From assembly GCF_027587175.1 (NCBI RefSeq), contig NZ_JAPCID010000007.1, forward strand, positions 1 to 64,000: DNA of 64,000 bases, read 5' to 3'. The position numbers and the translations under genes were made by a program. Shown in pieces: positions 8,142 to 57,952 of this stretch. This DNA comes from Solirubrobacter deserti. Its GTDB lineage: Bacteria; Actinomycetota; Thermoleophilia; Solirubrobacterales; Solirubrobacteraceae. Under the pieces are notes generated by a model. The model did no database searches. It saw nothing but the letters and a program-made list of their open reading frames with translations, and was not told the origin of the DNA. How positions within the stretch are numbered: position 1 is the first letter of the stretch; the number at the start of each line of letters is the position of its first letter.

Positions 8142-9467
<1,326 letters not shown>

Positions 9468-9537
9468 GAGGCTCCTCTTCGAGGGGAGGGTTAAGTCTCT
9501 GACCCCCATTGTGGCGGGCGCCGACTCTTGGGGTCGG

Positions 9538-9765
9538 TTACCCCGTGATGACGGACGTGTATGCCGTGACCGCGACGAGGATCACGGTCAGCAGGATGAG
9601 CCCGTTGCCGACGACCTTCGAGGGCGGGAACGTCGCGTGGCGGGCGATGCCCACGACCGACAGCAGGACCGCGAACGTCACCAGCACGCCCGCGGAGATG
9701 TAGAACGGCGCCTTGGAGACTTCCTCCTCCGCGACCTCGGCAGCGAACAGCACGGTGGCGAGCAT
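9538..9765 (-). CDS. Small membrane protein
   Basis: A 75-residue protein with two hydrophobic segments (residues ~24-43, ISAGVLVTFAVLLSVVGIA, and ~53-72, GLILLTVILVAVTAYTSVI) joined by a short polar loop RHATFPPSK. Its N-terminus is acidic (EVAEEEVSKAP). Probably a two-helix inner membrane protein. ATG 9765 lies 8 nt after a TAGCTT box whose TAG is the stop codon of dcd, suggesting a leaderless transcript of its own. Located between dcd and citrate synthase in the same direction. Function unknown. Confidence 0.65.
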   Translation of the reverse strand: MLATVLFAAEVAEEEVSKAPFYISAGVLVTFAVLLSVVGIARHATFPPSKVVGNGLILLTVILVAVTAYTSVITG

Positions 9766-9773
9766 CGAGCGGG

Positions 9774-9779
9774 AAGCTA
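9774..9779 (-). promoter_or_regulatory. -10 element TAGCTT overlapping the dcd stop codon
   Basis: On the minus strand TAGCTT is followed by 8 nt and the ATG at 9765. Its first three bases are the dcd stop codon (9779-9777). Confidence 0.5.
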
Positions 9780-10343
9780 CCGCATGTAGCGGCTCTCGGT
9801 CGCCGCCTCCTGGCCCTGGTAGTGCGAGCCCAGTTGGGGGGACCCGTACGGGACCTCCGCGGGCTTGTCCAGAGCCATGAACGACAGCTGCGCGATGAGC
9901 AACCCGGGATAGAGCTTGATCGGGACGCGCGTGAGGTTGTTGAGCTCGAGCGTGAGCGTGCCCTTCCAGCCCGGGTCGATGAACCCGGCCGTGGCGTGGA
10001 CGATCAGCCCGAGCCGCCCGAGCGAGGACTTGCCCTCGATCCGCGCGACCACGTCGTCGGGCAGCTCAACCCACTCCTCGGTGCGCCCGAGGCAGAACTC
10101 GCCGGGGTGGATGACGAACCCCTCGTCCGGCGTGACCACGACCTCCTCGGTCAGGTTCGCGGCGGGGCCCTCACGCAGGTCGATCGTCGCGACCTTGTGG
10201 TTGCTGAAGACCCGGAAGGAGTCGCCCAGGCGCAGATCGACGGACGCCGGCTGCACGAGCGACGGGTTCCACGGCTTGATGACGATCTGGCCGTCATCGA
10301 CGAGACGGCGGATCGTGCCGTCGGAGAGGACGGACGCGGTCAC
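9777..10343 (-). CDS. dcd: dCTP deaminase
   Basis: A 188-residue trimeric enzyme of the dUTPase superfamily that deaminates dCTP (some actinobacterial members also hydrolyse dUTP to dUMP), feeding thymidylate synthesis. Family motifs are present: VLSDGTIRRL at the N-terminus, PASVDLRLG, the catalytic region RIEGKSSLGRLGLIVHATAGFID and GTLTLELNNL, and the C-terminal YQGQ. GTG 10343 is chosen: it matches the usual N-terminus and follows a TAGTCT box by 8 nt with no Shine-Dalgarno. A perfect 22-bp palindrome sits 9 bp upstream of that box. Whether it is mono- or bifunctional cannot be read with confidence. Confidence 0.93.
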   Translation of the reverse strand: MTASVLSDGTIRRLVDDGQIVIKPWNPSLVQPASVDLRLGDSFRVFSNHKVATIDLREGPAANLTEEVVVTPDEGFVIHPGEFCLGRTEEWVELPDDVVARIEGKSSLGRLGLIVHATAGFIDPGWKGTLTLELNNLTRVPIKLYPGLLIAQLSFMALDKPAEVPYGSPQLGSHYQGQEAATESRYMR

Positions 10344-10351
10344 GGCGGGGA

Positions 10352-10387
10352 AGACTAGTGATGTGGCGTTCGGGCGCGCCCGAACGC
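10352..10387 (-). promoter_or_regulatory. dcd promoter with perfect 22-bp palindrome
   Basis: The leftward -10 box TAGTCT occupies 10357-10352. Upstream, 10366-10387 is a perfect palindrome whose half-site reads GCGTTCGGGCG, covering the expected -35 position. Likely an operator, although it also falls inside the 3' end of the small open frame 10355-10627. Confidence 0.5.
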
Positions 10388-10627
10388 GGTGACCGACCGC
10401 ACGCGCGGCGGCGACGTGAGGCGGGCGCCGCAGGCCGGTCCGCCGCGGCGCGGGGGCCGCGGCCGGCGCGGACGATGCGGGTGCGGACGCCGCGGGACGG
10501 GGGTCCCGCCGTCGTTGGTGACGTCGTCCGTGTCCGTCGTCTGCTTGACCGCCCACCAGACGATGTAACAAGCGGCCGCGATCGGCAGCTTGAGGAAGAC
10601 GAACAGGTAAAGCATCGCCCAGCCCAT
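10355..10627 (-). CDS. Possible small membrane protein with basic tail
   Basis: A 90-codon open frame. The first ~28 residues (MGWAMLYLFVFLKLPIAAAC, then YIVWWAVKQ) form one convincing transmembrane helix, followed by a short acidic linker and a strongly basic, proline-rich tail. The tail is encoded by a region rich in hairpins (a 7-bp stem at 10492-10509 and the perfect palindrome at 10366-10387), so the true stop could be affected by recent change. The hydrophobic start looks genuine; the C-terminal third may not be conserved. Function unknown; oriented toward dcd. Confidence 0.45.
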   Translation of the reverse strand: MGWAMLYLFVFLKLPIAAACYIVWWAVKQTTDTDDVTNDGGTPVPRRPHPHRPRRPRPPRRGGPACGARLTSPPRVRSVTAFGRARTPHH

Positions 10628-10691
10628 TCGCCCGTGGATGGTACGCCGATGCGCCCGCCGGGGAAGCGGGCGCGTCAGATATGGCGCAGCG

Positions 10692-11627
10692 CTACCCGCG
10701 CAGCGGCACGGGCGAGGCGTCGAACACCGTCACCCGCTGGAGCTCGGCGACGCGCTCGTTGACCTCCTCGGCCGTGAGCGTCTGCATGCGCTCGGTGCCG
10801 AAGGCCTCGACGTTGAAGGAGGCCAGCGCCGTGCCGTAGGCCATCGCGCGGCGCAGCAGCTCGTCCGTGATCTCCTCGTCGGCGTGCGCGGCCACGTAGC
10901 CGACGAAGCCGCCGGCGAAGGTGTCGCCCGCGCCGGTCGGATCCACGACGTCCGCCGTCGGATACGCGGGGATGCCGAAGACGCCGTCCTTGGTGTACAT
11001 GTTCGCGCCGTACTCGCCGAACTTGACCACGACCACGCGCGGGCCCATCTCCATGATCTTCCGGGCCGCGCGGACCAGGTTCGGCTCGTCGGTGAGCTGC
11101 TTGGCCTCGCCGTCGTTGACGATCAGGCAGTCGACGCCCGCGATCGTCTTCACGAGCGACTCGCGCGCGATGTCGATCCAGAGGTTCATCGTGTCCAGCG
11201 CGACGAAGCGCGCGCCGGTGCACTGCTCGCGCACGGCCCGCTGCAGGTCCGGCTGGATGTTGGCCAGGAACAGGACGTCGGCGTCCTTGGAGGCCTGCGA
11301 GAGCTTCGGCTCGAAGGACTCGAAGACGTTCAGGTCCGTCTGGAGCGTGTGGCGGATGTTGACGTCGCGCTCGTAGCGGCCCGCCCAGAAGAACGTCTTG
11401 CCGCCCGGCACGTGCTCGATGTCGTCCGTCACCACGCCGCGGTTGCGCAGCACGGCGTACTCCTCTTCGCTGAAGTCGTCGCCGACGGGCCCGACGACGC
11501 GGGTCTCGGCGAGGAACGAGGACGCGAGCGAGAAGTGCACGGCGGCGCCGCCCAGCAGGCGGTCGCGCTTGCCCGACTCGGTCTCGACGGCGTCAAAGGC
11601 AATGGATCCGACTACGGTGAGCGACAT
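10692..11627 (-). CDS. PfkB-family sugar/nucleoside kinase
   Basis: A 311-residue ribokinase-fold kinase phosphorylating a hydroxymethyl group of a sugar or nucleoside with ATP. PfkB signature 2 with the catalytic Asp is intact (DPTGAGDTFAGGF), and the N-terminal signature is seen in VVGSIAFDAVET and LLGGAAVHFSLASSFL. Substrate cannot be read; the VGSIAFD start and the region DTMNLWID place it in a group often annotated as adenosine kinase-like or sugar kinase. ATG 11627 follows a TACCCT box by 10 nt. Divergent from the DEAD-box helicase gene across 39 bp. Confidence 0.9.
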   Translation of the reverse strand: MSLTVVGSIAFDAVETESGKRDRLLGGAAVHFSLASSFLAETRVVGPVGDDFSEEEYAVLRNRGVVTDDIEHVPGGKTFFWAGRYERDVNIRHTLQTDLNVFESFEPKLSQASKDADVLFLANIQPDLQRAVREQCTGARFVALDTMNLWIDIARESLVKTIAGVDCLIVNDGEAKQLTDEPNLVRAARKIMEMGPRVVVVKFGEYGANMYTKDGVFGIPAYPTADVVDPTGAGDTFAGGFVGYVAAHADEEITDELLRRAMAYGTALASFNVEAFGTERMQTLTAEEVNERVAELQRVTVFDASPVPLRG

Positions 11628-17058: not shown

Positions 17059-18447
17059 ATGCGACGACTTCTCCTGACGTTCCCGCTCATCGCGCTGTGC
17101 GCGTGGGCTCCGCCCGCCGGCGCCTCCTCGCGCCAGGTCACGACCTTCGAGGCGCCGCGCGAGCTGCTCTCGGGCTCTACGCGCGCCACCACGCTCGATC
17201 AGATCAGCCAGTTCGGCGTCAAGCGCGTGCGCCAGCTCGTGTACTGGCGCGACATCGCGCCCGAGCCCGACAGCAAGACCAAGCCCGCCGGCTTCGACGC
17301 GAGCAACCCCGACAGCTATCCGGCGAACAAGTGGGACAACCTCGACGGCCTGGTCGCGGCCGCGCGCGAGCGCAAGATCGATGTCACGCTCACGCTCACC
17401 GGACCCGTCCCGAGGTGGGCGACCAAGGGCAAGCGCGACAACTACACCGATCCGCTGCCGGCGGAGTTCGGGGCCTTCGCGACCGCGATCGGCCGCCGCT
17501 ACGGCGACGCCGTCAACCTGTGGTCGGTCTGGAACGAGCCGAACCAGCCGCAGTTCCTGCGCCCGCAGTTCAAGAGCGGCAAGGCCTACTCGCCGAAGCT
17601 CTACCGCAAGCTCTACCAGGCGGCGGAGAGGGGGCTGCGCTCGACGCCGGCCAACGCGAAGGACACGCTGCTGATCGCCGAGACGTCGCCGCGCGGGAAC
17701 TCGAACATCGTCGCGCCGCTCGCGTTCCTGCGCGGGATGCTGTGCCTGGACTCCAAGTACCGCAAGTCCAAGTCGTGCGGGAAGCTCGAGCCGGGCGGCT
17801 ACGCGCACCACGCGTACACGACGAGCGCGGGGCCGCGCTGGGTGCCCCAGAACGCCGACGACGTGACGATCGGCGTGCTGCCGCGGCTGGTGACCGCGCT
17901 GGACAAGGCCGCGCGCGCGGGCGCGCTCCCCAAGCACCTGCCGATCCACCTGACCGAGTTCGGCATCCAGACCGAGCCGGACAAGATCAGCGGCGTCTCG
18001 CTCGAGCGCCAGGCCGCGTACCTCGCCGTCTCCGAGCACATCGCCTACGTGAACCCGCGGGTCGCCGCGTTCTCCCAGTACCTGATGAGCGACGACCCGC
18101 CGCGCTCGAGCGGCTACCGCTACGGCGGGTTCGAGAGCGGGCTCAAGAGCGCCGACGGCAAGGAGAAGCCCGCGTTCAACGGCTTCCGGCTGCCGCTCGC
18201 GGTCGAGGCGTACGGCAACCAGGACGTGCTGTGGGGGCTCGTGCGCCCGCAGCGGGCGGTGAGCAAGGTGACGATCGAGCGCCGGATCACGGGTTACAAG
18301 ACCTGGCGGGTGCTCAAGACGATCGACACGACGGCGTCCGGCGTGTACGCGCTCAAGACGCCCCGCAAGAAGGGCCAGCACTACCGCGTGAAGTGGACGT
18401 CCCCGAGCGGGACGACCTACACCGGTCCTTCGGTTCGCAGCTATTAG
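17059..18447 (+). CDS. Secreted glycoside-hydrolase-like protein (clan A TIM barrel)
   Basis: A 462-residue exported protein. MRRLLLTFPLIALCAWA, then PPAGASS, is a Sec signal peptide. The mature part resembles GH-A clan TIM barrels (GH39/GH5-like): strand-4 motif WNEPN places a probable acid/base Glu at residue 160 and LTEFG a probable nucleophile Glu at residue 300. TGPVPRWAT is shared with a paralog at 53358-54500 (TGPAPRWAT). The C-terminal ~90 residues form a small beta domain (YKTWRVLKTID, YRVKWTSPSG). Likely cleaves an extracellular glycan, substrate unknown. ATG 17059 is chosen for the signal peptide; no clear Shine-Dalgarno. A hairpin follows the stop codon. Confidence 0.82.
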   Translation: MRRLLLTFPLIALCAWAPPAGASSRQVTTFEAPRELLSGSTRATTLDQISQFGVKRVRQLVYWRDIAPEPDSKTKPAGFDASNPDSYPANKWDNLDGLVAAARERKIDVTLTLTGPVPRWATKGKRDNYTDPLPAEFGAFATAIGRRYGDAVNLWSVWNEPNQPQFLRPQFKSGKAYSPKLYRKLYQAAERGLRSTPANAKDTLLIAETSPRGNSNIVAPLAFLRGMLCLDSKYRKSKSCGKLEPGGYAHHAYTTSAGPRWVPQNADDVTIGVLPRLVTALDKAARAGALPKHLPIHLTEFGIQTEPDKISGVSLERQAAYLAVSEHIAYVNPRVAAFSQYLMSDDPPRSSGYRYGGFESGLKSADGKEKPAFNGFRLPLAVEAYGNQDVLWGLVRPQRAVSKVTIERRITGYKTWRVLKTIDTTASGVYALKTPRKKGQHYRVKWTSPSGTTYTGPSVRSY

Positions 18448-51131: not shown

Positions 51132-52166
51132 ATGGCGAGAGCGCACGAGGCAGGCATCGATTTCCGCGCCGTCGGCAAGCGCGCGCTGTTCTTCGCCGTG
51201 GTGGCCGTGCTCGCGATCGTGGCGCTCGCCGAGCTGCCCGGGATCGACGAGGTCCGCACCGAGTTCTCGCAGGCCGAGCCGGGCTGGATCGTTGCCGCGG
51301 CCGTGTTCCGGATCGGCTCGATGCTGGGGTTCGTGCGCGCGCTGTGGTCGGCCTTCGACCGCGTCATGCCGTGGCGGCGCGCGCTCGTCCTCGGCCTGGC
51401 CGAGCAGGGCGCGAACGTCCTGCTGCCCGCCGGCGGCGCGGGCGGGCCGGCCTACGGCGCGTACGTGCTGACGCGGCTCGGCGTGCCCGCCGACCTCGCC
51501 GCCCAGCGCCACGCCGCGCTGTTCCTGGTCACCAGCGCGGTGAGCTTCGCGGCGATCATCGTCGCCGGCACGCTGACGGCGATCGGTCTGCTGCCCGGCG
51601 AAGTCGCGCTGATCTGGACGCTCGGCCCGGCCGCGGCGATCGGGGCGCTGTTCGCGCTGGTGGTGCTGTTCGGCCGCAGCGATCCGCCGCAGGAGCCGGA
51701 GAGCGGGCGCGTGCGGCACCTGGTGTGGCGCGTCTGGGGCTTCGTGCGCGACGGGGTGCGCACGTCGCTTCAGCTCGTCCTGCACGGTGACCCGCTGCTG
51801 ATCGTCGGCTCGATCACCTACTTCGCGTTCGACGTCGCGAGCCTCGCCTGCATGTTTCATGCCTTCGGCGGCGGCGCGCCGGACCTCGGCGTGTTCGTCC
51901 TGGCCTACGCGCTCGGCCACGCCGGCGCGCTGATCCCCACGCCCGGCGGCGTCGGCGGCACCGAGGGTGGCCTGATCGGCGCCTTCGTCGCCTACGGCAC
52001 GGCGCTCCCACTGGCCACGGCGGCGGTTGTCGGCTACCGCGTCTTCCAGCTCGGCCTGCCGGCGCTGTTCGGCGCGGCGGCGCTCGTGCGCGTGCAGCAC
52101 GTGCTCGCGCACCCGCCACCGCGGGAGGAGGTCGCGGCGCGCTTCGAAGCGCACCGCTGGCGCTGA
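51132..52166 (+). CDS. YbhN/UPF0104-type membrane protein, second paralog
   Basis: A 344-residue protein with about eight hydrophobic segments (first ~18-35, FFAVVAVLAIVALAELPG). Signatures: NVLLPAGGAGGPAYGAYV near 105 and IPTPGGVGGTEGGLIGAFVA near 275, the latter the family hallmark. Same fold as the proteins at 46210 and 56879, but the three are not closely similar, so they probably diverged long ago and carry different lipids. ATG 51132 is the first start after the divergent MarR-GNAT gene. Function inferred as lipid flippase. Confidence 0.8.
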   Translation: MARAHEAGIDFRAVGKRALFFAVVAVLAIVALAELPGIDEVRTEFSQAEPGWIVAAAVFRIGSMLGFVRALWSAFDRVMPWRRALVLGLAEQGANVLLPAGGAGGPAYGAYVLTRLGVPADLAAQRHAALFLVTSAVSFAAIIVAGTLTAIGLLPGEVALIWTLGPAAAIGALFALVVLFGRSDPPQEPESGRVRHLVWRVWGFVRDGVRTSLQLVLHGDPLLIVGSITYFAFDVASLACMFHAFGGGAPDLGVFVLAYALGHAGALIPTPGGVGGTEGGLIGAFVAYGTALPLATAAVVGYRVFQLGLPALFGAAALVRVQHVLAHPPPREEVAARFEAHRWR

Positions 52167-52253: not shown

Positions 52254-53351
52254 ATGCGCGCACGTATCGCCGCCCTGATGTTGGGCGGGTTGCTCTGCAC
52301 CGCGGTCCCGGCCGAGGCGAGGGACCGGCCGTTGCCGGCCGACGGCGGACCGCGCCAGTTCGACCTCGAGGCCCACCGCGGCGGGCTCGGGCTCACGACC
52401 GAGAGCACGCTGCAGGGCTTCCGCAAGGCGCTGGAGCTCGGGGTCACCACGCTCGAGCTCGACGTCCAGATCACGCAGGACAAGTACGCCGTCGTCACGC
52501 ACGACCGCCGCGTGTCCGCCCAGAAATGCAAGGACACCACGCCGGTCACGGCGGGTGACCCGGAGTTCCCGTATGTGGGCAAGTTCATCAAGGACCTCAC
52601 GCTCGCCCAGGTGTGGACGTTGGACTGCGGCCAGCCGCTCGCCGACTACCCGCTGCAGGAGGTCATCCGCGGCGTCAAGATGCCGCTGCTGCGGCAGGTG
52701 TTCGCGCTCACCGAGTGCATGCGCGGCGACCGCACGTGGATGAACATCGAGACCAAGGTCGAGGCCGGCGCGCCGCACGAGACCGCGCCGCGCGAGGAGT
52801 TCGTCCAGATCACGGCGCAGGAGATCCGCCGCGCGCGCGTCCAGGACCGCGTCACGATCCAGAGCTTCGACTGGGGCAGCCTGATGCGCTGGCGGCAGGT
52901 GATGCCGCGCCTGCCGATCGTCGCGCTCACCAACGGCGACTTCCTGCAGGTCGGCCAGCCGGGCGCGTCGCCGTGGCTGGGCGGGATCGACGTCGACGAC
53001 TTCGGCGGCTCCTACGTGCGCGCCGCGCACTCCTTCGGCGCCGACGCGCTCTCGCCCGTGCACGGCAACCCGCAGAACGGCAAGGTCGGCGACCCGAACT
53101 ACGTGCCGTACACGACGCCGGCGCTGGTGCGCGAGGCGCACCGCGTCGGCCTGCCCGTCGTGCCGTGGACGGTCGACGATCCCGCGACGATGGCGTCGCT
53201 GATGGACGCCGGTGTCGACGGGATCATCACCAACTATCCGGACCGGCTGCGCGCCGTGATGGCGCAGCGCGGCTACAAGCTCCCGCGCGGGGAGCGTGAG
53301 CCGCGCCACACCGACTGCGTCGGCTACGCGATGTCGGCCGCCAAGCCGTGA
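52254..53351 (+). CDS. Secreted glycerophosphodiester phosphodiesterase
   Basis: A 365-residue exported GDPD-family enzyme. Signal peptide MRARIAALMLGGLLCTAVPA. Catalytic features: the first His-Arg in LEAHRGGLGLTTESTLQGF, ELDVQITQDKYAVVTHDRRV (metal ligands Glu-x-Asp and the second His), and NIETKVE. The C-terminal PVVPWTVDDPATMASLMDAG and DGIITNYPDRLRAVM match the family. Likely hydrolyses glycerophosphodiesters or teichoic-type polymers outside the cell. A strong GGAGGA Shine-Dalgarno precedes ATG 52254 and a TAGCGT box is about 50 nt upstream. Confidence 0.92.
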   Translation: MRARIAALMLGGLLCTAVPAEARDRPLPADGGPRQFDLEAHRGGLGLTTESTLQGFRKALELGVTTLELDVQITQDKYAVVTHDRRVSAQKCKDTTPVTAGDPEFPYVGKFIKDLTLAQVWTLDCGQPLADYPLQEVIRGVKMPLLRQVFALTECMRGDRTWMNIETKVEAGAPHETAPREEFVQITAQEIRRARVQDRVTIQSFDWGSLMRWRQVMPRLPIVALTNGDFLQVGQPGASPWLGGIDVDDFGGSYVRAAHSFGADALSPVHGNPQNGKVGDPNYVPYTTPALVREAHRVGLPVVPWTVDDPATMASLMDAGVDGIITNYPDRLRAVMAQRGYKLPRGEREPRHTDCVGYAMSAAKP

Positions 53352-53357
53352 GCTGAC

Positions 53358-54500
53358 TCAGGCACCGGGCCGGAGCAGTCCGGCCCGGCGCTGCCGCTCC
53401 ACCCACGCCTTCAGCGAGGTGAAGGAGGCGTCCGGCGAGCCGTCGGGGCGCAGCAGCCCGGTGTTCCACTGCACCTCGGGGTTCTGCAGCAGCCCGAAGT
53501 AGAGGAGCTCGGAGACCTTCGGGTTCTTGCGCGCGAGCTCGAAGGCCTGCGTGATGTAGCGGGCGCGGGTCGAGCGCGGGAACGCGAGCGAGCCGGACGC
53601 GAAGTAGGCGAACTCGGTCAGGTGCACGGCGGGCTCGCGGCCCTTGGAGGTCGACAGCGCCTTGGCCCGGCGCAGGCGCGTGAGCGCGTTCGTGAGCCGG
53701 CTGACGGTGCCGATCGTGACGTCGTCGGCCGGGATCTTCTTGTACGTGGGCGAGTGCCGGTAGTCGTACGGGTGCAGCGAGACGGCGTCCGCGCGCACGG
53801 TCCCGCAGCCCGAGCGCTTGCGCCAGCGGGTGTCGACGCACAGCACGTCGCGCATGAACCGCAGCGGCGCGTACGCCGCCCCCGGTCGGGCCTGCGGGGC
53901 GAGCTCGCCGAACGAGACCTGCGCGCGCGAGTCGGCGCGCTTGATCGCCGAGTAGGCGCCGCGGTACAGCGCCCGGTACTGCTTGGCGGCCGTCCGCGCC
54001 GGGCTCAGCCACGAGTGCCAGTTCGGCTCGTTCCAGATGCTGTAGCGCTCGACGTCACCGCGGTAGCGCTGCGCGACGAAGGAGGCAAAGCGCGCGTACT
54101 CCTTCGCCGACGGCCCGCGCGTGGACGGCCCGCGGCGGTCCGCCGTCGCCCAACGCGGCGCCGGACCGGTGAGCGTGAACTCCAGCCGCATGTCGTGCTG
54201 CTTGGCCAGCGCGACCAGGAAGTCGAAGTCGCCGAGCTCGTAGCGCACGCGCGAAGGCTTGGAGCGCTGGTTGGCCTGGCCGCTGGCGAGCACGCGCGAC
54301 CAGATCATGTTCGCGCGGAGCTTGGTCACGCCGAGCTCCTTGGCGCGCACCATCGCCGCCTCGCGGGTGAAGGTGGCGCTGCTGTCGCCGAGGAAGACGA
54401 AGTCGTCCTGCAGGCCGATGTCCATCGTGCGCGAGGCGTGCGCGGGCGCGCACAGCGCGAAGAACGCGATGAGGAGGCTAATCGAGCGCTTGAAGTTCAT
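53358..54500 (-). CDS. Secreted glycoside-hydrolase-like protein, paralog of 17059-18447
   Basis: A 380-residue exported protein with signal peptide MNFKRSISLLIAFFALCAPA. WNEPN places the probable acid/base Glu at residue 158 and LTEFAYF the nucleophile Glu at residue 296. TGPAPRWAT and the Glu spacing mirror the paralog at 17059 (Glu160/Glu300). It lacks the C-terminal beta domain of that paralog. The start overlaps the stop of the SGNH lipoprotein gene by 23 bp, so it is part of the leftward exported-protein operon. Target glycan unknown. Confidence 0.82.
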   Translation of the reverse strand: MNFKRSISLLIAFFALCAPAHASRTMDIGLQDDFVFLGDSSATFTREAAMVRAKELGVTKLRANMIWSRVLASGQANQRSKPSRVRYELGDFDFLVALAKQHDMRLEFTLTGPAPRWATADRRGPSTRGPSAKEYARFASFVAQRYRGDVERYSIWNEPNWHSWLSPARTAAKQYRALYRGAYSAIKRADSRAQVSFGELAPQARPGAAYAPLRFMRDVLCVDTRWRKRSGCGTVRADAVSLHPYDYRHSPTYKKIPADDVTIGTVSRLTNALTRLRRAKALSTSKGREPAVHLTEFAYFASGSLAFPRSTRARYITQAFELARKNPKVSELLYFGLLQNPEVQWNTGLLRPDGSPDASFTSLKAWVERQRRAGLLRPGA

Positions 54501-55338
54501 CTGTGAGGAAGGGTCCCAGGGTCGCGGCGAACGTCGGGGTGACGTGCGTGAGGTCGTGATAGGCAAGAACACCGCCGATGACAGGAAAGCACCGGTGCTG
54601 GTCGCAGAAGTAACGGCTCAGGTCGATCACGGGCGCTTGGCGCTGCCCGGCCGCGGCCACCGCCGGGTCGGGCGCCAGGGCGGTGTCGCGGGGGACGGCG
54701 CAGCTCGACCCCGGCTTCTCCGTGGCGGCGTTCACGCACGCCAGCGTGTCCTCGCGCAACTCGGGCGTGTCGCGGAGCACGACGAGCTTCACCGTGGGCG
54801 GGAGGCGGTCCCAGGCGGCGAGCCAGTTCGCCGGGTCCTGCGAGGCGGCGTTGCGGGGCAAGCCGATGATGAACACGGTCCTGACCTCGGGGTGGGCTGC
54901 GAGCCACTGCGGCACCTGCTGCTTCCAGGTCGCGCATTCCGAGAACGCCGGCTCCGGCAGCGGGCGGCCGTCTGCGACGAACGGACAGCCGTTGCGGGTG
55001 ATCGCGTAGCCGCGCCGGCCGAGCCGCTCGGCCGCGACCGCGAACGCCGAGCGCAGCGCGTTCGCGTGGCTGTCACCGACCAGCGCGAACGTCTCGTCCC
55101 CGCGGCCGAAGGCGCACGGCTCGACCAGGCCGAGCGGCTGCGCGCGCTCGCACGGCGCGCCGCGGGCGCCGCTGCGCTCGACGGTGTCGGGCTCGGGGCA
55201 GCCGTTGGCGAGCGCCGCGGCGCCGGCGCAGCCCTCGGCGGTCGGGGCCGGGGTCGCGCGCGGCGGCGCGGGCTGCTCACCGCAGCCGGCGAACGCGAGC
55301 GCGAGCGCCACCACGCTAAGCGAAGCCGACGACCGCAC
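54478..55338 (-). CDS. SGNH-domain lipoprotein
   Basis: A 286-residue exported protein whose GTG 55338 start gives signal peptide VRSSASLSVVALALAFAGC with lipobox FAGC. The mature part is an SGNH-like hydrolase as found C-terminal to OafA/YrhL acyltransferases: FALVGDSHANALR (block I), RNGCPF, WKQQVPQWLAAHPEVRTVF and the C-terminal YHDLTHVT with the catalytic Asp/His pair. Four conserved cysteine pairs are shared with the next gene. Without an acyltransferase membrane domain it probably trims or transfers acyl groups on surface polysaccharide. The 5' part overlaps the SGNH gene upstream by 23 bp. Confidence 0.78.
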   Translation of the reverse strand: MRSSASLSVVALALAFAGCGEQPAPPRATPAPTAEGCAGAAALANGCPEPDTVERSGARGAPCERAQPLGLVEPCAFGRGDETFALVGDSHANALRSAFAVAAERLGRRGYAITRNGCPFVADGRPLPEPAFSECATWKQQVPQWLAAHPEVRTVFIIGLPRNAASQDPANWLAAWDRLPPTVKLVVLRDTPELREDTLACVNAATEKPGSSCAVPRDTALAPDPAVAAAGQRQAPVIDLSRYFCDQHRCFPVIGGVLAYHDLTHVTPTFAATLGPFLTDELQALD

Positions 55339-56239
55339 GCAGCAGGAACGGCCCGAGCGTCTCCGCGAAGTGCCGCGTGAGGTGGTTGAGATCCTTGTGT
55401 ACCAGGACGCCACCCACGACCGGATAGCAGTTGCGCTCATCGCAGAAGTGCGGGGTGAGGTCCACGAGCCGGAACCGCGACGGGTCCGCCTGCGTGATCG
55501 CGACCTCGACGGGGTCCGGCGGCAGCGCCGTCGCGCGCGGGATCGCGCAGTGGGTGCCGGGCGTGCGGCGGCGGTTGAGCGCCCGCTGCACGCAGCGCAT
55601 CGTGCTCACCTGCGCGGACGGGTTGTCGCGGATCACGAACACGCGCGTGACGGACGCCGGCAGCCACGACCAGGCCCGCACGTGCCCGGCGACCTGCGCC
55701 TCGAACGCCGGCATCGGCCCCGGCGCGTAGTCCCGCGGGCCGGGCGTCTTGGTCGCCAGGAAGACCGTCGTGACCTCGGGGTGCCGGTCCAGCCACTCCA
55801 CGACCTGCTGCTTCCACGCCGCGCACTCGGAGAAGAACGGCTCGGGCTGCGCGAGCGGCACCGTCGTCAGCGAGCAGCTGTTGCGCGAGAGCTGGTAGCC
55901 GTGCCACTGCAGCCCGCGTGCGAGTTCCGCGAGCGTCGGGCGCCAGTGCGCGGCGTGGCTGTCGCCGAACAGCGCGAAGTGGGCGCGGGCGTTCGGGCTC
56001 AGCACGCCGAACTCGCACGGCACGACGAGCCCCTCCGGCACGAGCTTGGTGCACGGCGCGCCGCGCACGAGCGGCGCGTTGCGCGGGTGCGGGGTGACCT
56101 TCAGGCGCAGCGACGGGTTCACGCACGGCAGCATCGGGTCGCGCGCCGCGGCGCCGAAGCAGCTCGGCGCCGCGCCCGCCGGCGGGGTGAACGCGGCCAG
56201 CACCGCAAGCGCCGCGAGCGCGACGACCCAGACCTTCAT
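55316..56239 (-). CDS. Secreted SGNH-domain protein, tandem paralog
   Basis: A 307-residue exported protein with signal peptide MKVWVVALAALAVLAAF, cleaved near PAGAAP. Same SGNH layout as the gene downstream: FALFGDSHAAHWR, SRNSCSLTT, CAAWKQQVVEWLDRHPEVTT, CAIPRATALPPDPV, and HKDLNHLTRHFAETLGPFL with Asp/His. It is a tandem duplicate, soluble rather than lipid-anchored. ATG 56239 overlaps the stop of the ankyrin-like fragment upstream (ATGA). The substrate is presumably acylated surface glycan. Confidence 0.78.
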   Translation of the reverse strand: MKVWVVALAALAVLAAFTPPAGAAPSCFGAAARDPMLPCVNPSLRLKVTPHPRNAPLVRGAPCTKLVPEGLVVPCEFGVLSPNARAHFALFGDSHAAHWRPTLAELARGLQWHGYQLSRNSCSLTTVPLAQPEPFFSECAAWKQQVVEWLDRHPEVTTVFLATKTPGPRDYAPGPMPAFEAQVAGHVRAWSWLPASVTRVFVIRDNPSAQVSTMRCVQRALNRRRTPGTHCAIPRATALPPDPVEVAITQADPSRFRLVDLTPHFCDERNCYPVVGGVLVHKDLNHLTRHFAETLGPFLLRAVVGFA

Positions 56240-56562
56240 CGGGCGGCCTCCTCCAGCCGCACAGCGACCTCGTCGGCCGCCAGCTCGATCATGGCGTCTG
56301 TAACGCGGGCCCCCGCCTCGAGTAGTGCGGTTGTCGCCTCCAGGTAGCCGTCGAGCCTCTCAGGGGCGCCGCGGAGCTCCCGCGAGCCCCACGCCGTCCA
56401 GCCGAGCGGCGGGCCGTGGATGGAGCCGGCGTGCGAGTCCGCGCCGCGCGCGAGCAGCAGCCGTACCGTGCTGCCGCGGCCCCACATCCCCGCATCGTGC
56501 AGCGCCGCGCGCCACGAGTCGATCGCGAACGTGCACGGTGATCCGTCGAGCGATGGGCCTCA
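56236..56562 (-). pseudogene. Truncated ankyrin-like gene
   Basis: The open part (56236-56487 from ATG) encodes 83 residues with ankyrin-like repeats (STVRLLLARGADSHAG, TTALLEAGARVTDAM). Conserved-looking sequence continues upstream in the same frame without any start codon (translating to SLDGSPCTFAIDSWRAALHD) until an in-frame TGA at 56560-56562, so the N-terminal part of an older gene appears to be lost. The remaining stub still ends with an ATGA overlap to the SGNH gene. It may be translated from an internal start, or be decaying. Confidence 0.5.
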
Positions 56563-56611: not shown

Positions 56612-56875
56612 CTATTGCAAACCCTGACGGGCTTCGCGCACGAGCGTGACCGCCTCGGGGAAGACGGTCGCCATCACCGACCGGATCTGCTGAGCCTGTT
56701 GCTCGGTGGTGCCCTGGATGTTGACGCGGTTGATGGCTGCGACGGTCATGTCGACCGCGAGCTTGATCGCGTTGTCCGCCCACGCCAGCGTCTGAGCCGA
56801 CTGCATCTGCTCGGCCATCTCCTGCATTCGACGCTGAAAGTCTGGGTCGTTGAAGAACCCGCCAAAGCCTTCCAT
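56612..56875 (-). CDS. Small hypothetical protein
   Basis: An 87-residue soluble, predicted all-helical protein, rich in Gln, Ala and Met (RRMQEMAEQMQSAQ, TTEQQAQQIRSVMATVF). No recognised family. Its ATG 56875 lies 3 bp after the stop of the YbhN-like gene, so it is probably cotranscribed with it. Possibly a partner of that membrane protein, but this is only position-based inference. Confidence 0.6.
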   Translation of the reverse strand: MEGFGGFFNDPDFQRRMQEMAEQMQSAQTLAWADNAIKLAVDMTVAAINRVNIQGTTEQQAQQIRSVMATVFPEAVTLVREARQGLQ

Positions 56876-56878
56876 GGC

Positions 56879-57952
56879 TCAACTGTACTGGTGGCAGAGC
56901 GCGCCGCGGTGCGCGCGCTCGCGCTTGCGGCGCTCCGGCTCCCGCTCGCCGGCGTCCTCGGCCTCCCAACGGGCGACCGTGCGGCGCAGGGTCGCGAAGG
57001 CGACCGCGCCCGGCGCGATCGGCAGCCAGAAGGAGAAGAAGCGGTACGCGAGCACGGCGACGATCGCGGTGCCCGGGTCCACCCCGAACGCGATGAAGGC
57101 GCCGATCATGCCGCCGTCCACGCCGCCGACGCCGCCCGGCAGCGGGAGCGTGTTGGCGAGCATGCCGATGAAGTAGCCCAGCACGAGCGCGCCGAACGCG
57201 GGGGAGGCGCCGAAGGCCTCAAAGCACGCCCACAGGCAGGCGATGTCGAAGCCCCACTTCATCAGCGAGCCGAGCAGGCCGGCGTTGCCGGACGCGATCA
57301 GGCGGCGCGCGTCGCGCACGCCCTGGCCGACCGGCGCCAGCCAGCGCCGCAGACGGCTCTCGCCCGGCTGGACGAGCTGCGCGCTCGCGACCAACGCGAT
57401 CACCGCGCCGCCGAAGATCGCGGGGACGATCGTCAGCGAGAACGAGCCGCCTCCGGGAATCAGGCCGACGTACATGCCGAGCCCGCCGAACAGCAGCGCG
57501 CCCATGTAGACCATGTACAGCAGCACCATGAACGTGGTCATGCGGGCGGCGACGTCCCGGGCTTCCATGCCCGACTTCCGCAGCGCCCAGGCCGTGAGCG
57601 CGATGCCGCCGGCGCCCGCGGACGCGAACAGGCGCGTCGCGGCGTGGCCGGCGAGGGCGATCTCGGTGCTCGCGCGGAACCCGATCCGTGTGCCGTTGCC
57701 GTCGCGGTCGATCGAGACCGCGCGGAACAGGATCGCGTAGCCGACGAAGGACAGCGCCTCCAGGATCAGCGCGAACGTGAGCCAGCCGAGATGTCCGGTG
57801 GAGAGCTTGGACCAGACATCGGGGAGATCGGCCAGCGCGGGAGCGATCACCACGAGGCCGACGACCATCAGCGCGCTCGCGAGGACGAGCACGACGATCT
57901 GCCGAGGGGAGACGCGCCCGATCGGCGGGCGCTCGGCGGTGGTCGCGGCCAT
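56879..57952 (-). CDS. YbhN/UPF0104-type membrane protein, third paralog
   Basis: A 357-residue membrane protein of the LPG synthetase TM family with about eight hydrophobic segments (first ~20-45, VLVLASALMVVGLVVIAP). The hallmark LPLPGGVGGVDGGMIGAFIA is near residue 278, with SAGAGGIALTAWALRKSGM earlier. The last ~25 residues are very basic and acidic (WEAEDAGEREPERRKRERAH), a cytosolic tail. Third of its kind in the window and in a different transcript from the others. Probable lipid flippase. Confidence 0.8.
   Translation of the reverse strand: MAATTAERPPIGRVSPRQIVVLVLASALMVVGLVVIAPALADLPDVWSKLSTGHLGWLTFALILEALSFVGYAILFRAVSIDRDGNGTRIGFRASTEIALAGHAATRLFASAGAGGIALTAWALRKSGMEARDVAARMTTFMVLLYMVYMGALLFGGLGMYVGLIPGGGSFSLTIVPAIFGGAVIALVASAQLVQPGESRLRRWLAPVGQGVRDARRLIASGNAGLLGSLMKWGFDIACLWACFEAFGASPAFGALVLGYFIGMLANTLPLPGGVGGVDGGMIGAFIAFGVDPGTAIVAVLAYRFFSFWLPIAPGAVAFATLRRTVARWEAEDAGEREPERRKRERAHRGALCHQYS

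What the first reader, a model, noticed from the sequence alone, without database searches (positions are those of the whole stretch)
53358..56562. Leftward operon of secreted SGNH pair, glycosidase-like protein and ankyrin remnant
Two tandem SGNH proteins, one soluble and one lipoprotein, overlap each other and the glycosidase-like gene by exactly 23 bp each, and the first overlaps an ankyrin-like fragment by ATGA. All three intact products are exported. SGNH domains of this type normally sit on acyltransferase-3 membrane proteins; here they are free-standing, with a TIM-barrel glycan enzyme. This looks like a small machine for deacylating or remodelling an acylated surface polysaccharide and I do not know a described system with this set.
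Basis: inference. Interest (0 to 1): 0.7.

Follow-up and report, generated by a model that had tools for sequence, protein, structure and literature searches.

The report
Secreted acyltransferase pair with glycosidase gene
A soil bacterium carries three neighbouring genes for exported enzymes, two that probably move small acyl groups on or off a surface sugar polymer and one that probably cuts that polymer; the parts are known, but the acyl enzymes lack the membrane half they are usually fused to, which makes an open question about split acyltransferases testable.

Summary
On the minus strand, 56239-53358, lie three exported proteins: an SGNH protein, an SGNH lipoprotein and a clan-A glycosidase. 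Both SGNH proteins match PF19040, the SGNH half of AT3-SGNH acyltransferases, with no AT3 part. The trio is conserved in four Solirubrobacter species and absent as a unit from two. The exact 23-bp overlaps are not conserved, and the ankyrin piece is a remnant peculiar to this species.

The SGNH1 model (pLDDT 92.9) is closest to the Salmonella OafB SGNH domain (Z 17.3), then PatB. The catalytic triad residues are intact and block II appears to be Asn, as in the transferases OafB and Campylobacter PatB. The glycosidase is closest to PslG, with both catalytic Glu conserved.

Free-standing PF19040 proteins turn out to be common in Solirubrobacteraceae. In five genera, including this genome, one sits beside an MBOAT; most of the MBOATs read end in the FxYxxF acyl-shuttle motif, and several clusters add a PatB-family protein. 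I therefore favour acyl transfer to, and trimming of, a surface polysaccharide, with a membrane partner encoded elsewhere, over plain deacylation. Activity, substrate and partner are inferred, not shown. New variant of a known kind.

The parts
55316..56239 (-). SGNH1: exported free-standing PF19040 SGNH protein, 307 aa; catalytic Ser94, Asp283, His286
54478..55338 (-). SGNH2: PF19040 SGNH lipoprotein, 286 aa from the GTG at 55338; start uncertain, the frame is open further upstream
53358..54500 (-). Exported clan-A glycosidase, PslG/GH39-like, 380 aa; E158 (NEP) and E296 (TEF) conserved
56236..56562 (-). Ankyrin-protein remnant (C-terminal ~90 residues), only in this species; not part of the module
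56612..56875 (-). Conserved small protein (87 aa) upstream; present also in species without the trio, so a neighbour and not a part
56879..57952 (-). Flippase-like PF03706 membrane protein upstream; conserved neighbour
52254..53351 (+). Convergent GDPD gene; at this site only in this species and S. taibaiensis, so not core
51132..52166 (+). Second PF03706 flippase-like gene; conserved flank

Best explanation
The trio is an extracytoplasmic O-acylation and trimming module for a surface or exported polysaccharide. SGNH1 (soluble) and SGNH2 (membrane-anchored lipoprotein) are the transfer halves of OafB/PatB-type acyltransferases. They take an acyl group, as an ester on the GDSH serine, from a separately encoded membrane acyltransferase and pass it to sugar hydroxyls. 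The PslG-like glycosidase cuts or trims the same polymer. The best candidate donor in this genome is its single MBOAT on contig C101, which ends in APFIYFRF and sits next to a PatB-family (DUF459) protein and another free SGNH; one of the three AT3-only proteins is the alternative. Shown by computation: fold of SGNH1, triad residues, the catalytic Glu pair, gene order, and the MBOAT cluster in other genera; export signals are read from sequence. Inferred: transfer rather than hydrolysis, the partner, the polymer, and joint action of the three.
For: Both SGNH proteins are PF19040. The SGNH1 model has pLDDT 92.9; the best PDB match is OafB's periplasmic SGNH domain, Z 17.3 over 238 residues beginning in its SGNH extension, then PatB, Z 14.3. 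Ser94, His286 and eight Cys are invariant, and Asp283 nearly so, in 31 relatives, fused and free. The residue two before the invariant Cys122, taken as block II by its Cys anchor, is Asn in both trio clades; OafB has Asn459 there (PMC7448272) and Campylobacter PatB Asn165 (PMC12148441, which ties Ser or Asn at block II to transfer over hydrolysis). PMC9487903 calls the characterised SGNH-AT3 enzymes transferases and DUF459 the PatB family. In 11 genomes of five genera a free SGNH lies next to an MBOAT, in several with a DUF459 protein; ten of eleven called MBOAT genes end in FIYF[RS]F, the acyl-shuttle motif of PMC12148441. The one Solirubrobacter species without any PF19040 protein also lacks an MBOAT. 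For the glycosidase, the family profile hits PslG at E 6e-16 with both Glu aligned, and the weak model also ranks PslG first. In three genomes of two other genera a free SGNH adjoins a different secreted clan-A glycosidase-like protein. The trio is present in four species and absent as a unit from two that keep the flanking genes.
Against: No MBOAT, AT3 or polysaccharide synthase lies beside the trio, so the donor is a guess. Species G192 has the MBOAT cluster but not the trio, so the trio is not required for it. OafA/B SGNH domains also hydrolyse model esters (PMC7448272). The block II argument rests on a sequence anchor, not on measured geometry. Flanking genes are syntenic too, so conserved order alone does not prove joint function. 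The glycosidase model is poor (pLDDT 57.9).
Confidence: 0.45

Rival explanations
1. Deacylation and cutting module: both SGNH proteins are esterases that strip acyl groups from the organism's own surface polymer (as Ape1 does for peptidoglycan), opening it to the glycosidase for turnover or release.
For: No membrane acyl donor in the operon; SGNH proteins are mostly esterases and OafA/B SGNH domains hydrolyse pNP-acetate (PMC7448272); Ape1 is an SGNH esterase encoded with PatAB (PMC12148441); AlgX and AlgJ show esterase activity in vitro (PMC9487903).
Against: Closest fold and family members are transferases (PMC9487903); Asn at block II rather than Gly; paralogous free SGNH proteins sit with an MBOAT and a PatB-family protein.
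Confidence: 0.3
2. Nutrient scavenging: secreted esterases plus a glycosidase break down acetylated plant or microbial polysaccharides in soil.
For: Esterase-plus-glycosidase sets are common in carbohydrate use (general knowledge); the glycosidase family is large in this order, 197 of 232 genomes.
Against: No sugar transporter or other catabolic gene at the locus; the nearest solved glycosidase is PslG, an exopolysaccharide enzyme; SGNH2 is membrane-anchored.
Confidence: 0.13
3. The three genes are neighbours by descent without a shared function: unrelated secreted proteins in a syntenic block.
For: Flanking genes are equally syntenic; the glycosidase has about eight relatives per genome; the two SGNH clades are not resolved as sisters.
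Against: The trio is gained or lost as a unit; the genes overlap or abut; a free SGNH beside a glycosidase recurs in two other genera.
Confidence: 0.12

Closest known systems
OafA/OafB (AT3-SGNH O-antigen acetyltransferases), SGNH half
   Same: PF19040 domain, SGNH extension, triad, likely counterparts of the three Cys pairs tested in OafA, block II Asn as in OafB; best structural match (PMC7448272)
   Different: No AT3 membrane domain; own signal peptide or lipobox instead; two tandem copies; next to a glycosidase
PatA/PatB peptidoglycan O-acetylation (MBOAT plus separate SGNH, with esterase Ape1)
   Same: Separate exported SGNH protein; PatB is the second-best fold; a PatB-family gene and an MBOAT with the FxYxxF tail occur elsewhere in this genome with a paralogous free SGNH
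   Different: No MBOAT at this locus; the SGNH proteins are PF19040, not DUF459; polymer unknown
Exopolysaccharide operons that pair O-acetylation with a polymer-cutting enzyme (alginate AlgI/J/X with AlgL, cellulose wss and ccsZABHI)
   Same: SGNH-type acyl enzymes together with a polymer-cutting enzyme (PMC6813494, PMC7710045, PMC9487903)
   Different: Here without synthase, MBOAT or export genes in the operon
PslG (GH39 endoglycosidase acting on Psl)
   Same: Best sequence-profile and structural match; both catalytic Glu aligned
   Different: About 20% identity; below Pfam's GH39 cut-off; not in a Psl-like operon; substrate unknown
SucT (mycobacterial AT3-SGNH acyltransferase)
   Same: The only NCBIfam model matched with a low E-value, over its SGNH part
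   Different: 47-54 bits against a cut-off of 1275; no AT3 part

Membership tests
PF19040 SGNH domain family | Match above the gathering score | tested here: met
   114.7 and 111.7 bits, cut-off 27
PF19040 SGNH domain family | Ser (GDS) and DxxH triad residues | tested here: met
   GDSHA at 92-96 and D283..H286 in SGNH1; GDSHA and DLTH in SGNH2
PF19040 SGNH domain family | SGNH fold | tested here: met
   SGNH1 model against 6se1, Z 17.3, 3.6 A over 238 residues; SGNH2 not modelled
AT3-SGNH acyltransferase (OafA/OatA/SucT type) | N-terminal AT3 membrane domain fused to the SGNH domain | tested here: not met
   307 and 286 aa with only a signal peptide and extension before the SGNH part; Pfam finds no PF01757
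MBOAT-SGNH system (PatAB, AlgIJX) | MBOAT encoded with the SGNH protein | tested here: not met
   None beside the trio; one on contig C101 of the same genome
MBOAT-SGNH system (PatAB, AlgIJX) | MBOAT with C-terminal FxYxxF acyl-shuttle motif as donor | tested here: inconclusive
   The genome's one MBOAT ends APFIYFRF but is not linked to the trio
MBOAT-SGNH system (PatAB, AlgIJX) | O-acyl transfer to a polymer | not testable with these tools
   needs biochemistry
GH39 / PslG | Pfam GH39 match above the gathering score | tested here: not met
   16.7 bits against 26
GH39 / PslG | Clan-A barrel with acid/base Glu in NEP and a second catalytic Glu on a later strand | tested here: met
   E158 and E296 invariant in 26 homologs and aligned to PslG; fold from a low-confidence model
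Exopolysaccharide synthesis operon | Synthase or glycosyltransferase in the operon | tested here: not met
   Nearest flanks are PF03706 flippase-like, GDPD, GNAT-MarR and NHL-repeat proteins

The most novel reading that the evidence does not exclude
The trio is a split OafA/B-type acyltransferase: PF19040 transfer domains without their AT3 half, loaded in trans by AT3-only or MBOAT membrane proteins encoded elsewhere and shared among several free SGNH proteins with different targets, two of them coupled to a polymer-cutting enzyme. That would supply the kind of soluble partner that has been proposed but not found for AT3-only proteins.
Probability: 0.2. Interest if true: 0.7.

Novelty: new variant of a known kind. 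Interest (0 to 1): 0.45.

Why it matters
Whether AT3-only membrane acyltransferases need a separate SGNH partner is stated as an open question (PMC9833829, PMC7448272, PMC9558356; the last leans towards AT3 working alone, and also reports that the AT3-only protein WecH can work with PatB). This genome has three AT3-only proteins, one MBOAT, no AT3-SGNH fusion and five free PF19040 SGNH proteins, so the partner question can be tested by deletion and by in-vitro loading. The trio also couples acyl transfer to a polymer-cutting enzyme in a group of soil bacteria whose surface polymers I found nothing about.

Tried and rejected
The 23-bp overlaps as a conserved coupling signal: not kept in relatives. 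The ankyrin piece as a system part: remnant peculiar to this species. GDPD as a core gene: at this site in only two of four species. A fused AT3 upstream of either SGNH frame: none. An AT3-only gene beside a free SGNH in the fetched loci: a scan for multi-TM proteins nearby showed MBOATs, PF03706 proteins and a few others that I did not identify, and nothing I recognised as AT3. The AT3-only genes of this genome have no SGNH neighbour among the called genes. PDB sequence relatives of SGNH1: none by phmmer or profile, so the link to OafB rests on Pfam and structure. Viral relatives of the glycosidase: none. Sigma-70-type promoters: none found, uninformative at this G+C. Rfam: none. SGNH1 and SGNH2 as products of a recent tandem duplication: each clade has 100% support but they are not resolved as sisters. 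Co-occurrence of the SGNH clade with the MBOAT subfamily across the family (27 both, 14 SGNH only, 12 MBOAT only, 93 neither, tallied by hand; Fisher p 1.6e-10) is not corrected for relatedness or incomplete genomes and is used only as support. An early profile built by mistake from three concatenated proteins was discarded and redone.

Full report
What is there. SGNH1 and the glycosidase begin with Sec-type signal peptides and SGNH2 has a lipobox; these are read from the sequence. Both SGNH proteins match PF19040, named by Pfam for the SGNH domain fused to AT3 domains, at 112-115 bits against a cut-off of 27. The glycosidase gives only sub-threshold Pfam matches (DUF5722, GH39, GH1, GH10).

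Conservation. The window's genome is, or is very near, Solirubrobacter sp. CPCC 204708 (100% match). SGNH1-SGNH2-GH recurs in S. taibaiensis, S. phytolaccae and a fourth species (G189), at 62-82% protein identity, with dN/dS 0.23-0.72. Two further Solirubrobacter genomes (G191, G192) keep the upstream LysR, flippase-like and small-protein genes but have other genes in place of the trio, and no close copy of any of the three elsewhere. So the trio comes and goes as a unit, but inside one genus. The exact 23-bp overlaps are not conserved. The ankyrin stretch lies only in this species, between the small protein and SGNH1, and corresponds to the last ~90 residues of a ~400-aa ankyrin protein of S. 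taibaiensis: it is a remnant.

What the SGNH proteins are. In an alignment of 31 free and fused relatives the GDSHA block, the block V His and eight cysteines are invariant, and the block V Asp nearly so. The AlphaFold2 model of SGNH1 is good (pLDDT 92.9). Its best PDB match is the periplasmic SGNH domain of Salmonella OafB (6se1, Z 17.3, 238 residues, beginning in the SGNH extension that sets acceptor specificity in OafB), then PatB (Z 14.3) (PMC7448272). Block II, which is Gly in ordinary SGNH esterases, lies two residues before a conserved Cys in OafA (Ser437 and Cys439, PMC7448272). The same place in both trio clades is Asn, as at block II in OafB and Campylobacter PatB, and PMC12148441 links Ser or Asn there to transfer over hydrolysis. 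This placement rests on the Cys anchor, not on measured geometry.

Free-standing PF19040 is a lineage trait. Among the loci fetched I classed 35 proteins as free, 18 as carrying a shorter N-terminal extension and 57 as AT3-fused, the last mostly outside the order (counts depend on what was fetched and on a simple gene caller, and include two fragments). The maximum-likelihood tree puts nearly all free forms and the Solirubrobacterales AT3-fused ones in one strongly supported clade in which the architectures are mixed. This genome has five PF19040 proteins, none fused to AT3, three AT3-only proteins and one MBOAT.

Clue to the membrane partner. On contig C101 of the same genome another free SGNH follows an MBOAT, a DUF459 (PatB-family) protein and a small secreted Cys-rich protein. 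MBOAT beside free SGNH occurs in 11 genomes of five genera. Ten of eleven called MBOAT genes end in FIYF[RS]F; the eleventh, in L130, is shorter as called. In PatA the Tyr of the FxYxxF motif carries the acetyl group to PatB (PMC12148441). The one Solirubrobacter genome without PF19040 also lacks the MBOAT. This links the free SGNH family to acyl transfer, though it does not link the MBOAT to this trio. AT3-only donors remain possible: WecH can replace PatA with PatB (PMC9558356).

The glycosidase. A 26-member family profile finds PslG as its best solved relative (E 6e-16), with NEP Glu158 and TEF Glu296 aligned to PslG's two catalytic Glu motifs. The structural model is poor (pLDDT 57.9) but ranks PslG first, hardly above many clan-A barrels. 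PslG cuts Psl and takes part in its synthesis (PMC6813494). The family is widespread in the order, 197 of 232 genomes, and there is a paralog in this window at 17059-18447. In G110, G170 and G175 a free SGNH is adjacent and convergent to a different secreted protein with WNE(A/E)N and TETGG motifs, distantly related to this family, so SGNH next to a glycosidase is not confined to Solirubrobacter.

Mechanism. Most likely the SGNH pair receives acyl groups from a membrane protein encoded elsewhere and transfers them to a surface or exported polysaccharide that the glycosidase trims (confidence 0.45). Deacylation followed by cutting is the main rival (0.30); foraging (0.13) and chance neighbourhood (0.12) follow. 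Enzyme activity, donor, acceptor and joint action are not shown by anything here.

Verdict. Known parts in an arrangement that I did not find described; a new variant of a known kind. Interest 0.45, mainly because the genome separates every AT3 or MBOAT membrane half from its PF19040 SGNH half and so makes the partner question testable.

Noticed in passing
L013:4260-7867 (own genome, contig C101): MBOAT, DUF459, small secreted Cys-rich protein and free SGNH in a row; the flanks carry a protein that reads like a contractile tail sheath (L013:1-1482, by eye) and an AAA ATPase with a winged-helix domain (L013:7864-9837), which suggests a contractile injection system next door.
   Followed up: partly
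cluster 1 proteins, e.g. L013:6666-7001, L152:6601-7005, L010:5474-5839: A small secreted Cys-rich protein without any Pfam match occurs near free SGNH genes at 14 loci; function unknown.
   Followed up: partly
window 17059-18447: A second secreted member of the same glycosidase family, with the NEP and TEF motifs conserved.
   Followed up: partly
L161:6534-7805 (own genome, contig C103) and other 'ext' forms: Some free SGNH proteins carry an extra N-terminal region of roughly 150 residues that Pfam does not recognise.
   Followed up: no
L169:7726-8703 and 8825-11011: A free SGNH directly downstream of an AT3-SGNH fusion on the same strand, in genome G061.
   Followed up: no
L190:6968-8943, L193:6978-8831, L196:6930-9028: Free SGNH convergent with a different secreted clan-A glycosidase-like protein, in two genera.
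   Followed up: partly
window 51132-52166 and 56879-57952: Two PF03706 (lysylphosphatidylglycerol synthase TM region) genes flank the locus and are conserved with it in the genus.
   Followed up: partly
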